Shown one piece after another: positions 55,341 through 58,553 of a DNA stretch of 64,000 nucleotides; position 1 is the stretch's first letter, and every line of letters begins with the position of its first letter. The notes beneath the pieces are model-generated. The model saw only the letters and a list, made by a program, of their open reading frames with translations. It was not told the origin of the DNA and searched no databases. The translations under genes were made by a program, and so were the position numbers. Origin of the DNA: Tsukamurella tyrosinosolvens (GTDB lineage: Bacteria; Actinomycetota; Actinomycetes; Mycobacteriales; Mycobacteriaceae); assembly GCF_900104775.1 (NCBI RefSeq), contig NZ_FNSA01000003.1, forward strand, positions 2,294,001-2,358,000. The letters run 5' to 3'.

Positions 55341-55526
55341 TCAGCCCCGCCGCGCGCGCCACCAGCGCCGACGGTGCGCCGGCACCGCATGAGCGGCGTG
55401 CGCGTCGCGCTTGTGGCGGCACACCGCTCCGGCGGCCGCGACCTCGTCCGGGTCGAAGCCCTCGGGCACGGGACCGTCCGCGACGAGGGCCCGGACCAGC
55501 GCCTCCTGGCGCTCCCGCAGGCTCAT
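55341..55526 (-). CDS. Small SCO6045-like partner protein of the MNIO operon
   Basis: 61 residues. MSLRERQEALVRALVADGPVPEGFDPDEV followed by CRHKRDAHAAHAV and a basic Arg/Trp tail. It resembles the small SCO6045-type domain and the N-terminal part of DUF2063/putative DNA-binding partners found next to DUF692 enzymes, which recruit the peptide substrate. Start ATG 55526 lies 2 nt after the MNIO stop, so it is the last gene of the four-gene operon. A longer frame to 55565 lies inside the MNIO gene. Confidence 0.72.
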   Translation of the reverse strand: MSLRERQEALVRALVADGPVPEGFDPDEVAAAGAVCRHKRDAHAAHAVPAHRRRWWRARRG

Positions 55527-55528
55527 GC

Positions 55529-56389
55529 TCACTTTTTCCGCGCGTGCTGCGTGATCGGCGCGCAACCCGCTGCCGCGGCGATCGCGTCGAGTTCGTCGAA
55601 GAGCTCGGCGGCGGGCGGGTAGCGCCCGTCACGCTCCAGCATGAACGGCACGTCCACGCGTTCCCGCAGCGCCGTGACCAGCGCCAGCACGCCCGCGTTC
55701 ACCGGGTCGGTGTGCGTGTCGTGGTAGCGGCCGCCGCCCTCGGACCCGCCGGCGACGTGGCTGTAGGCGATCCGGTCGACGGGCAACCGGGACAGCTCGT
55801 CCTGCGGGTCGCGGCCCCGGTTGAGGGCATTGGCGTAGACGTTGGCCACGTCGAGCACGAGCAGGGCTCCGGTGCGCTCCAGCAGTGCGGCGAGGAACTC
55901 CGCCTCGGTGTACTCCTCCTCGGGCCAGCGCAGGAACGCGGCGATGTTCTCCACCGCGAGCGGTACCGGCAGGGCGTCCTGCATCCGCGTGATGTTGCGG
56001 ACCAGAACGTCGAGTGCTTCTCGCGTGCGCGGCACGGGCAGGAGGTGCCCGGCCTCGATGCCGCCCGCACGGACGAAGGCGATGTGCTCGCTGACCAGGG
56101 GAGCGTCGAGGGCCTCGGCGCAGGCCGTCAGACGGTGCATCCGTTCCGGCTCGAGCTCGTCGGCCCCGCCCAGCGAGAGCGCGACGCCGTGCGGCACCAG
56201 GGGGACCCCGCGGTCGCGCAGCTCGACGAGCAGCGGGTCGGGCTCGGCGCGGCCCCGTCGGATCCGGACGGATTCGGCGATGACCTCGCAGAACCCCGGT
56301 CGCAGGTCGGCGATCACGCCCGCGATCTCGCGCCGCCAGCCCAGGCCGAGCGGTCCGAGGGCGGGGACGGTGCCGGTCATGGCGCTCAT
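55529..56389 (-). CDS. DUF692/MNIO family multinuclear iron oxidase
   Basis: 286-residue TIM-barrel enzyme of the MbnB/ChrH class (MNIO). Expected metal ligands are all present: HG in LVPHGVALSL, SEHIAF, Glu in AVENIAAF, LDVANVYANA, SHVAGG, the DTHTDP motif and the late Glu in LERDGRYPP. Such enzymes use two or three irons and O2 to rewrite Cys, Asp or Asn residues of a peptide. The ATG overlaps the stop of the upstream Cys/Gly-tail protein gene (ATGA), which makes that tail the prime substrate candidate. The small partner gene follows after 2 nt. Confidence 0.87.
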   Translation of the reverse strand: MSAMTGTVPALGPLGLGWRREIAGVIADLRPGFCEVIAESVRIRRGRAEPDPLLVELRDRGVPLVPHGVALSLGGADELEPERMHRLTACAEALDAPLVSEHIAFVRAGGIEAGHLLPVPRTREALDVLVRNITRMQDALPVPLAVENIAAFLRWPEEEYTEAEFLAALLERTGALLVLDVANVYANALNRGRDPQDELSRLPVDRIAYSHVAGGSEGGGRYHDTHTDPVNAGVLALVTALRERVDVPFMLERDGRYPPAAELFDELDAIAAAAGCAPITQHARKK

Positions 56390-57297
56390 CCTCCGCACCC
56401 GCCGCAGCCGCCACAACCCCCGCAGCCCCCGCAGCCTCCGCCCCCGTCGCCGCCGCAGGAGGCGCCCCCGCACGACCCGCCGCCCTCACCGGAGGCCTCG
56501 GCGCTGCCGGCCAGCTCGACGTTCTCGGCGAACGCCCCGTCGAACTGCCACAGGGCGGCCGTGCCGAAGACGGCCACGGACGGTCCGACGGCGGCGGAGC
56601 CGTACGTCGCCCAGGCGGGCTTCCGGGAGGGCGCGAGGTACTCCAGGCGGTCCTTCTCGGCACGGAGCAGTCGCTTCCCGGCGCGGGTGTCACGTCCGAC
56701 GGACCACAGGTGCGGAGCCACGACGATCGTCGTGATCAGTCCCGGCACCAGGAACCCGGTCACGAGCGGAACCTCGTGGTGCCCCAGCACGACGAGGCGC
56801 ACGAAGGCCGTGATCACGCCGCCCACGGCGGCGGCGGTCACCGGGGCGGCGCCGAGTCGCATCCGCCAGCGGTCCGCCTCGGAGCGCAGGTAGCCCCGGG
56901 CGGCGACGCGCTCCTCGAGCGCGTCGAGCTCGTCCGACAGCGCGAGGGTGACCTCGTTGACCGTGTACGACGACACGTCGTCGCAGTACGCGTGAACGGC
57001 ACGGACGAACGGGTCGGCGTCCCGCGGCAGCGGCGGCCCGGACATCTGCCGTACCGAGCTCACGTGTCCGCCCGTGCGCAGCTCGGCCAGCGCCACGACG
57101 ACGGGGGCCTGCCGGCTCCGCACGCACGCCAACTCGACGGGTGTCAGCGGCGGTTCGCCGACGCGGCGCCGACGGGGCGCGGTCACGAATCGCCAGGCCA
57201 GAGCGAACGCGATGCCGCCGAGGAGCAGGAGCAGGAACCACCGGGTGTCGGTGGGCAGGAGTGTTTCGAGGACGCGCTCGAGCGTGGTGCGGGACAT
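56386..57297 (-). CDS. TIGR04222-like membrane protein with Gly-Cys repeat tail, copy 1
   Basis: 303 residues. N-terminal helix (about 18-35, FLLLLLGGIAFALAWRF), a soluble region with LTPVELACVRS (about 52-62), two further hydrophobic segments (about 155-198), a basic loop, one more hydrophobic segment and a C-terminal tail. The tail contains two SCGG motifs and ends in five consecutive Gly-Gly-Cys-type units, seven cysteines in the last 30 residues. I associate the domain with TIGR04222. AGGAGGT lies before ATG 57297; the stop is shared with the MNIO start. The tail looks like a modification substrate or metal-binding module. Confidence 0.83.
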   Translation of the reverse strand: MSRTTLERVLETLLPTDTRWFLLLLLGGIAFALAWRFVTAPRRRRVGEPPLTPVELACVRSRQAPVVVALAELRTGGHVSSVRQMSGPPLPRDADPFVRAVHAYCDDVSSYTVNEVTLALSDELDALEERVAARGYLRSEADRWRMRLGAAPVTAAAVGGVITAFVRLVVLGHHEVPLVTGFLVPGLITTIVVAPHLWSVGRDTRAGKRLLRAEKDRLEYLAPSRKPAWATYGSAAVGPSVAVFGTAALWQFDGAFAENVELAGSAEASGEGGGSCGGASCGGDGGGGCGGCGGCGGCGGCGG

Positions 57298-57392
57298 GAC
57301 GTTCACCTCCTGGTGAGTGGATCGGCGAGACCGCGGCGCCCTCGCTGCTGAAGGGCCGGTGCGTGGAACAGGTCGGAGCCGAGAGGGGCGGC

Positions 57393-58317
57393 TCAGCCTC
57401 CGCAGCCGCCCCCGCCGCCGCAGCCGCCTCCTCCGCCGCACGACGATCCGCCGCCGCTGCAGGAGGATCCGCCGCAGGTGAAGGAGCTGCCGCAGGACGA
57501 TCCGGAGCCGCCGCTGCCGGTCCCGCCCGCAACGGCCATCGCCGCCGCGTACCGGGGGTCGATCTGCCACAGGGCGGCGGTGCCGAAGAGGGCGACGGAC
57601 AGGCCCACCGCCGCGGCGCCGTAGGTGCCGAAAGCCGGCCGCAGCGACGGCCGCAGGTAGCTCGCGCGAGCCTGCTCGGCCGCGAGGAGCCGCTTTCCCG
57701 CGCGGGTGGTGCGCGGCGCCGATGCCAGCGGGGGGGAGGAGGAAGACCGCCGTGAGCACGGACGGGACGAGGAAGGACATGACCGCCGCCTCTACCGGAT
57801 AACGCCCGGTGATGGCCAGTACGGGCGTGCACAGGACCCCCGCGACCACGACGGCGGCGAGCGGCATCGCACCGAACCGGGTGCGCCAGCGCTCACTGCT
57901 GGTGCGCAGGTAGCCCCGCCGTGCGAGACCGTCCTCCAGGTCTCGCAGGGGCTGCAGCTGGTCGTGGAGCAGCAGGGTCACGGAGAACTGCGAGCCGTCG
58001 AGCCGGTGCAGCATGCGCCGGGTGAAGTCGTCCGCGGTGGGCGGCAGCGGTCGGGCGGGGTCGGCGCGACCGTCGGCGTCGAGGTGCCCACCCGCCCTGA
58101 GCAGGCCCATCGCCGCGACGAGCGGCGCCTGCCAGGAACGCAGGCAGGCGATCTCCGCCACGGTGAGCGGTGGGTGCTCGACGACCGGGCGCCGGACCGC
58201 GGTCAGGAAACGCCAGGTCAGAGCGAAGGCGATGCCGCCGAGCAGGCAGTACAGGAACCAGCGGGACTCGGTGGGGAACAGATTGTCGAGGACGTTCTCG
58301 AAATCATTGCGGGACAT
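57393..58317 (-). pseudogene. TIGR04222-like Gly-Cys tail protein, copy 2, +1 frameshift
   Basis: Paralogue of copy 1 (same start MSR-x-x-x-E-x-VL, same order of domains). Length 925 nt is 3n+1. The reading frame runs correctly to LLPP, then shifts at a run of seven C (G on the plus strand, 57730-57736); removing one C restores TRAGKRLL...FGTYGAAAVGLSVALFGTAALWQ and a tail with six cysteines in SCG and GCGG motifs. Unshifted, the frame continues open through copy 1, with no stop. It could be a sequencing error, a true pseudogene or a slippage switch. Its Shine-Dalgarno AGGAGGT and promoter region (58318-58565) are intact. Confidence 0.8.
57730..57736. repeat. 7-nt G/C homopolymer at the frameshift
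   Basis: Seven consecutive G on the plus strand (C on the coding strand) where six would keep the gene in frame. Length is in the range seen for slippage or homopolymer sequencing errors. Confidence 0.6.
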
Positions 58318-58553
58318 GACATTCACCTCCTGAGACGAGCGGACCTTCAATGGTGGGTAAAGCATGGCGGCAGATCGGGCTACCCGCTAGTAACCGAGGG
58401 CAAGAATTTGCTGAGAGTTCGTGTGGCACAGGATCGTCCCTCGTAGGACGGCCGTTCGTTCACCTTCCGTCCCCGCCGGTCCGCGTCGCGGCCCGACGCG
58501 AAGGCCTCCGCCGGCCGGGCCCGGGCCGGAATCCACGCCCGGATGAGTGCGCA

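What the first reader, a model, noticed from the sequence alone, without database searches (positions are those of the whole stretch)
55341..58317. MNIO iron oxidase coupled to two membrane proteins with Gly-Cys repeat tails
Sequence shows four tightly packed minus-strand genes: two paralogous membrane proteins ending in SCGG/GCGG repeats (6 and 7 cysteines), a DUF692 enzyme with the full ligand set overlapping the tail gene by ATGA, and a 61-residue partner. Family knowledge: MNIO enzymes modify Cys/Asp/Asn of ribosomal peptides, usually soluble leaders. Inference: the Cys tail, displayed on a membrane anchor, is the substrate or a metal site; thiol chemistry could connect to mshC next door. 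Substrates of this type (anchored, about 10x GC repeats) are not described as far as I know.
Basis: partly seen in the sequence, partly recalled or inferred. Interest (0 to 1): 0.9.

Follow-up and report, generated by a model that had tools for sequence, protein, structure and literature searches.

The report
Iron oxidase with membrane-anchored cysteine tails
Next to a gene for an iron-dependent peptide-modifying enzyme sit two genes for membrane proteins with long glycine-cysteine tails, probably what the enzyme modifies; the pairing was predicted in print in 2025, is common in actinobacteria, and still awaits a chemical test.

Summary
The cluster is real: two tandem TIGR04222 membrane-protein genes with Gly-Cys tails, an MNIO (DUF692) enzyme starting in an ATGA overlap, and a 61-residue ORF, in Tsukamurella tyrosinosolvens. 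Tail gene 1 is frame-broken at a C7 run; relatives carry intact pairs. The claim that such substrates are undescribed is wrong: Antoine et al. 2025 (PMC12452194) reported the TIGR04222-MNIO link and proposed the tails as substrates. Added here: (1) tail genes and this type of MNIO are both present (11) or both absent (5) in 16 Tsukamurella genomes; TIGR04222 lies just upstream of the MNIO in 76 of 80 named loci, 75 with at least two tail cysteines; (2) the 61-residue protein is a shortened member of the partner family found after 80 of 80 of those MNIOs; (3) charges favour tail outside, soluble loop inside; (4) a second MNIO of the same genome sits beside a Cys tail on a single hydrophobic segment, in 11 of 11 Tsukamurella genomes with that enzyme. 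Against: in one unnamed genus, 6 of 8 MNIO-linked TIGR04222 proteins lack a Cys tail. mshC adjacency was seen only in Tsukamurella. The modification and the function are untested.

The parts
57393..58317 (-). TIGR04222 membrane-protein gene 1, 6-Cys tail; the reading frame changes at the C7 run 57730-57736, so it is not one intact ORF in this assembly
   Evidence: the same fused ORF is annotated in NZ_LR134462.1
57393..57551 (-). Gly/Ser/Cys tail of gene 1 (6 Cys)
56386..57297 (-). TIGR04222 membrane-protein gene 2, 303 aa, four hydrophobic segments, 7-Cys tail
56386..56541 (-). Gly-Cys tail of gene 2, ending CGG
55529..56389 (-). MNIO (DUF692, PF05114) enzyme; ATGA overlap with gene 2
55341..55526 (-). 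61-residue partner: shortened member of the partner family that follows these MNIOs (provisionally PME-type 2)
58399..58417 (-). conserved element CTCTCAGCAAATTCTTGCC upstream of tail gene 1; candidate promoter or regulator site

Best explanation
This is an MNIO modification cluster whose substrate is a membrane protein. The cytosolic MNIO, helped by a very small partner, oxidises cysteines in the Gly-Cys tails of the TIGR04222 proteins, most likely to a metal-binding heterocycle such as 5-thiooxazole; the membrane domain then holds the modified tail at the cell surface as an anchored metal (perhaps copper) ligand. Shown: genes, families, conserved putative active-site residues, co-occurrence, homology of the small partner to longer ones. 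Inferred: that the tail is the substrate (about 0.8), a thiooxazole-type product (about 0.5), export of the tail and metal handling (about 0.4). In this assembly only gene 2 is an intact substrate gene.
For: Both present in 11 and both absent in 5 of 16 Tsukamurella genomes, adjacent in all 11. 14 of the 15 TIGR04222-positive genomes among 296 have an MNIO, within about 2.1 kb in 14 of 14. TIGR04222 directly upstream on the same strand in 76 of 80 named MNIO loci, 75 of the 76 with at least 2 tail Cys; of the 4 misses 3 are MNIOs at a contig edge and one (L138) has a 7-Cys tail ORF. 19 of 20 further loci agree (one of them, L206, looks like the same locus as named L149); the odd one, L195, has a Cys tail on one hydrophobic segment. 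In 73 aligned proteins Cys is 8.9% of tail residues against 0.49% of the body; 312 of 352 tail Cys precede Gly; 68 of 73 tails end CGG. Nine putative iron-ligand residues are invariant in 9 of 9 MNIOs; HvfB variants N175A, D242A and H244A are inactive (PMC13419390, section 23), and I map these to N179, D220 and H222. A second MNIO with another anchor and a Cys tail in 11 of 11 Tsukamurella genomes that have it.
Against: No chemistry was tested. In genus g8 (unnamed, 6-10 Mb genomes) 6 of 8 MNIO-linked TIGR04222 proteins have no Cys-rich tail, and 2 of 10 such MNIO loci have no TIGR04222; L162 also has the domain without a Cys tail. Five of 19 MNIO-bearing genomes of the phylum sample have no TIGR04222 over its cut-off. 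Three Tsukamurella genomes carry an extra Cys-tailed TIGR04222 copy with no MNIO in the 12 kb read. If the tail is outside, a cytosolic enzyme must act before it crosses the membrane. None of the 13 features annotated within about 5 kb of the cluster is a copper gene (other loci not checked). The 80 named loci are the best of 519 relatives of MNIOs taken from such clusters, so that sample is biased.
Confidence: 0.75

Rival explanations
1. The tail is an unmodified metal-thiolate or structural Gly-rich tail, and the MNIO acts on something else, for example another part of the membrane protein or a substrate elsewhere in the genome.
For: 6 of 8 g8 loci keep MNIO and TIGR04222 without a Cys-rich tail. 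Cys-tailed copies exist without a nearby MNIO. Cys-free Gly-rich tails exist on a DUF2207 protein (L084) and on small single-segment relatives in genomes without MNIO.
Against: Tail Cys goes with the enzyme: 75 of 76 named loci. Among single-segment tail proteins, at least 2 Cys in 7 of 7 genomes with MNIO against 2 of 10 without (p 0.0023). The eight Cys-free ones are all of family f80, so relatedness confounds this, and four of the 21 matched genomes were dropped. One dropped case, G318, has an MNIO and a Cys-free single-segment protein without a Gly tail; counting it gives 7 of 8 against 2 of 10, p 0.015.
Confidence: 0.17
2. The cluster is linked to mycothiol: mshC next door supplies or senses the thiol chemistry of the tails.
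For: mshC lies divergently beside the cluster here and is found in 11 of 11 Tsukamurella cluster regions.
Against: 0 of the other 77 named loci have mshC within the flanks held, at most 6 kb and some cut short. The g8 loci sit by genes that I recognise as haem-synthesis genes (recalled, not searched).
Confidence: 0.03
3. The frame change in gene 1 is used: slippage on the C7 run gives a mixture of products, or the 643-residue fused frame is the real protein.
For: The run is seven C; the fused frame is open and is annotated in RefSeq.
Against: Relatives carry two separate intact copies (L049, L054). The stretch between the change and the start of gene 2 reads as an arginine-rich sequence in the fused frame, while the other frame carries the rest of the TIGR04222 match and a Cys tail.
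Confidence: 0.05

Closest known systems
TIGR04222-MNIO clusters of Antoine et al. 2025 (PMC12452194; abstract, passages, sections 15, 17 and 18 seen; supplements not seen)
   Same: TIGR04222 membrane protein with a C-terminal Ser/Gly/Cys tail, adjacent MNIO, small partner, mostly Actinomycetota, proposed as MNIO substrate
   Different: Two tandem tail genes, one frame-broken; partner cut to 61 residues; charges here put the soluble loop in the cytoplasm, where they describe large periplasmic domains
Bufferins and captophorins (MNIO with PME-type 1; HvfABC, fontiphorin; PMC12668002 passages, PMC13419390 passages and section 23 seen)
   Same: MNIO oxidises Cys followed by Gly in repeated motifs; the nearest NCBIfam model to this enzyme is bufferin maturase
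   Different: No EGKCG motif in the tails, no DUF2063 match in the partner, no DoxX-named gene among the 13 annotated features around it; substrate is a polytopic membrane protein; enzyme below the BufB cut-off (190 against 310 bits)
DUF2207 membrane proteins (PF20990, DUF2207_C)
   Same: Distant relative of the TIGR04222 domain (52 of 73 members match weakly; L083 matches both models, TIGR04222 below its cut-off); L084 has a Gly-rich tail
   Different: The L084 tail is Cys-free; these genes were not examined for an MNIO neighbour

Membership tests
MNIO (PF05114) | Profile match over the curated cut-off | tested here: met
   261.5 bits against 25
MNIO (PF05114) | Conserved multi-iron ligand residues | tested here: met
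   H63, H98, E143, D176, N179, H207, D220, H222, E248 invariant in 9 of 9; most are seen in the alignments to 3bww and 8hci. That these are the iron ligands is recalled, apart from the three site-3 ligands mapped from PMC13419390
MNIO (PF05114) | Iron-dependent oxidation of a peptide | not testable with these tools
   needs biochemistry
TIGR04222 | NCBIfam cut-off of 43 bits | tested here: met
   gene 2 95.8 bits; N-terminal part of gene 1 alone 51.5 bits; its C-terminal part alone 33.7
PME-type 2 partner (Antoine et al. 2025) | Encoded after the MNIO and homologous to the longer partners there | tested here: met
   the 61-residue protein matches longer partners down to E 5.5e-13 (L145); a partner hit (E up to 0.01) follows 80 of 80 named MNIOs
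PME-type 2 partner (Antoine et al. 2025) | Structural relation to the DUF2063 protein NGO1945 (3dee) | tested here: inconclusive
   a profile of 20 longer partners (A4) matches no PDB chain up to E 10; DUF2063 matches 1 of the 20, E 0.016; no structure prediction was available
PME-type 2 partner (Antoine et al. 2025) | Full or partial C-terminal RRE-type part (present in some members only) | tested here: not met
   the homology ends about 45 residues in; the part where longer partners go on is missing. That the longer ones carry an RRE-type fold there is the paper's statement, not tested here
Bufferin maturase BufB (NF050167) | Equivalog cut-off of 310 bits | tested here: not met
   190.2 bits
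Captophorin/oxazolin | EGKCG motifs in the precursor and a DUF2063 partner | tested here: not met
   no EGKCG in the tails; the partner has no Pfam match up to E 1
RiPP precursor | Post-translational modification of the tail | not testable with these tools
   needs mass spectrometry

The most novel reading that the evidence does not exclude
Actinobacterial MNIOs serve a class of membrane-anchored protein substrates rather than secreted peptides: the anchor is interchangeable (a four-segment TIGR04222 domain, or one hydrophobic segment in the second MNIO cluster of the same genome) while a low-complexity Cys tail is the constant part. Because the Tsukamurella partner has shrunk to about 45 conserved residues, substrate recognition would be done by the substrate itself, through its cytoplasmic soluble loop, which also occurs alone as a soluble Gly-Cys-tailed protein in another genus.
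Probability: 0.2. Interest if true: 0.75.

Novelty: new member of a known kind. Interest (0 to 1): 0.45.

Why it matters
If the tails are modified, MNIO enzymes would act on polytopic membrane proteins and give cells anchored metal ligands instead of secreted ones. The question is already posed in print; this genome makes it easier to test, because it holds a 61-residue partner and a separate cluster with an 89-residue candidate substrate with one hydrophobic segment, which should be far simpler to express than a four-segment membrane protein.

Tried and rejected
Programmed frameshifting in gene 1: judged unlikely because relatives have two separate intact copies. mshC link: seen only in Tsukamurella among the loci read. 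Winged-helix or RRE-like fold for the soluble loop: only weak hints and no better than unrelated top hits (an unrelated receptor fusion E 0.09, ArsR chain E 0.098, HosA E 0.6; a wHTH Pfam model in 3 of 73, best E 0.017), so not claimed. PME-type 2 label for the partner: kept as provisional, since the longer partners match neither a solved structure nor, with one weak exception, DUF2063; for this reason I lowered the novel case from 0.25 to 0.2. MprA-type operator for the upstream element: a recalled likeness only; one search found no paper with 'MprA box' among its 8 listed. Single-segment tails as an MNIO-only family: rejected, since genomes of family f80 carry Cys-free versions without MNIO. 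Of the 21 genomes matched four were dropped before the Cys count: G318 (single-segment protein without Gly tail, MNIO present), G521 and G565 (no such ORF evident) and G336 (not fetched as a locus). The second MNIO match of G310 (91.9 bits; L075) was not counted among the g8 loci.
Full report
What is there. The cluster is 100% identical over 3101 bases to a Tsukamurella tyrosinosolvens NCTC13231 record. On the minus strand lie two tandem TIGR04222 genes, an MNIO and a 61-residue ORF. Gene 2 (303 aa) scores 95.8 bits for TIGR04222 (cut-off 43). Gene 1 is split between two frames: its N-terminal part covers profile positions 1-182 and its C-terminal part 184-229, the change falling in a C7 run at 57730-57736. 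RefSeq bridges it with one 643-residue CDS. Antoine et al. give a TIGR04222 size range of 70 to 643 residues; that their longest member is this fused frame is my inference.

Prior art. A full-text search for DUF692 with TIGR04222 found one paper; TIGR04222 alone found two, the second a Pseudonocardia genome paper seen only in the listing. Antoine et al. 2025 (PMC12452194; abstract, passages and sections 15, 17 and 18 seen, supplements not seen) report that 40% of more than 1,000 signal-peptide-less Cys proteins encoded before MNIO genes are TIGR04222, and propose the Cys-rich tails of a subset as MNIO substrates. They also report that more than a quarter lack C-proximal Cys and that a third of TIGR04222 genomes have no MNIO.

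Co-occurrence. TIGR04222 is in 11 of 16 Tsukamurella genomes, and the MNIO of this type (250-264 bits) is in the same 11, next to the tail gene in each. In 296 actinobacterial genomes, the window's own included, 15 have TIGR04222 over its cut-off and 19 have an MNIO; 14 have both, within about 2.1 kb in all 14. The fifteenth, G028, has its match at a contig end. Of 80 named MNIO loci, 76 have TIGR04222 just upstream on the same strand, 75 of these with at least 2 tail Cys. The misses are L105, L121 and L123 (MNIO at a contig edge) and L138 (a tail ORF with 7 Cys, membrane domain not recognised). L162 has the domain without a Cys tail. These 80 are the best of 519 relatives of an alignment built from such clusters, hence biased, and some are near-duplicates (L142 and L143 have the same tail). 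From the 101 of 298 order-level genomes with an MNIO at E 1e-40 or better I read 20 loci: 19 have TIGR04222 with a Cys tail, some with two or three tandem genes, and one (L195) has a Cys tail on a single hydrophobic segment.

Tail and topology. In 73 aligned proteins the tail is 43.7% Gly, 16.8% Ser and 8.9% Cys against 0.49% Cys in the body, with 2-9 Cys per tail; 312 of 352 tail Cys precede Gly and 68 of 73 tails end in CGG. Tails without a match were not in this set: rows with odd domain lengths and twelve loci, L162 among them, were left out. Mean K+R counts beside the four hydrophobic segments are 0.42 | 1.73 ... 3.32 | 0.22 | 3.63 ... 1.36 | 0.41, which favours N-terminus out, loop 1 in the cytoplasm and tail out; row by row this holds at the first segment in 57 of 73 (11 equal) and at the last in 53 of 73. 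By parity, a tail outside after four segments requires loop 1 inside; Antoine et al. describe large periplasmic domains. The domain looks like a distant relative of DUF2207_C: 52 of 73 members match weakly, best E 1.3e-4, and L083 matches both models, TIGR04222 at 27.5 bits, below the cut-off.

Enzyme and partner. Nine putative ligand residues are invariant in 9 of 9 MNIOs. The nearest NCBIfam model is bufferin maturase, below its cut-off. The 61-residue ORF is conserved in all 11 Tsukamurella clusters and is homologous over about 45 residues to the longer partners elsewhere and to the C-terminal domain fused to the MNIO in genus g8. A partner hit follows 80 of 80 named MNIOs; in 13 of the 80 no more than 65 residues follow the start of the homology (3 Tsukamurella, 9 Mycolicibacterium or Mycobacterium, 1 Rhodococcus). 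Filing it under Antoine's PME-type 2 is provisional: a profile of 20 longer partners matches no solved structure up to E 10, and DUF2063 matches only 1 of 20, weakly.

Results against. In g8 (unnamed; I take it for Streptomyces) 10 MNIO loci were read: 8 have TIGR04222, and only 2 of these (L063, L070) have a Cys-rich tail. Three more MNIO-bearing genomes of the phylum sample (G068, G104, G109) have no TIGR04222 over the cut-off. Three Tsukamurella genomes have an extra Cys-tailed copy with no MNIO in the region read, though each has the cluster elsewhere.

Second MNIO. In the same genome L058 holds another MNIO, an 89-residue protein with one hydrophobic segment (read by eye) and a Gly/Ser/His/Cys tail, and a 126-residue partner. 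Such a tail protein lies beside this enzyme in 11 of 11 Tsukamurella genomes that have it and in G375 (L195). It has no Pfam or NCBIfam match up to E 1. The arginines after its hydrophobic segment suggest that this tail stays in the cytoplasm (inference), unlike the TIGR04222 tail. Of 298 genomes searched with an alignment of these proteins, 21 match; after dropping four, at least 2 Cys are found in 7 of 7 genomes with MNIO and in 2 of 10 without (p 0.0023). All eight Cys-free cases belong to one family, and counting the dropped G318 gives p 0.015.

Neighbourhood. mshC and SCO1664 are in all 11 Tsukamurella cluster regions and in none of the other 77 named loci, within flanks of at most 6 kb. 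A 19-base element upstream of gene 1 occurs once in each of 9 of the 11 genomes with the cluster and in none of the 5 without; the other two have variants.

Verdict. A well-supported member of a published, untested class. The useful additions are the co-occurrence figures, the origin of the small partner, the topology argument, and the small second substrate candidate.

Noticed in passing
L058:5616-7194 (G000:C3, about 1217615-1219193): Second MNIO cluster of the same genome: MNIO, 89-residue protein with one hydrophobic segment and a 5-Cys Gly/Ser/His tail, 126-residue partner; such a tail protein lies beside this MNIO in 11 of 11 Tsukamurella genomes that have it.
   Followed up: yes
window 58399-58417, minus strand: Element CTCTCAGNAANYTCTTGCC, once per genome in 9 of 11 cluster-bearing Tsukamurella genomes and absent from the 5 without the cluster.
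   Followed up: partly
L079-L082: Proteins of the unnamed large-genome genus g8 (G168, G187, G237, G290) match only the loop part of TIGR04222 (roughly profile 25-147), show no membrane segment by eye, and end in a Gly-rich tail with a single Cys.
   Followed up: partly
L231, L233-L238, L240: Eight genomes of family f80 carry small single-segment proteins with Cys-free Gly/Asp/His tails and no MNIO.
   Followed up: partly
L055:5639-6661: The second tail gene of Tsukamurella G010 (assembly 83% complete) appears out of frame at its N-terminal end.
   Followed up: no
L007 (NZ_LR134462.1): The record labelled 'plasmid 20' carries metH, mshC and dapA, and its cluster is identical to the window's, which lies on a 4.9-Mb contig, so it is probably a chromosomal piece.
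   Followed up: no
L201, L203, L204: Some MNIO loci have three tandem ORFs with TIGR04222 matches, with Cys tails on two or three of them.
   Followed up: no
L063-L067, L069-L073: In genus g8 the MNIO is 431-484 residues long; where aligned (L063, L070) its extra C-terminal part is homologous to the separate partners elsewhere.
   Followed up: partly
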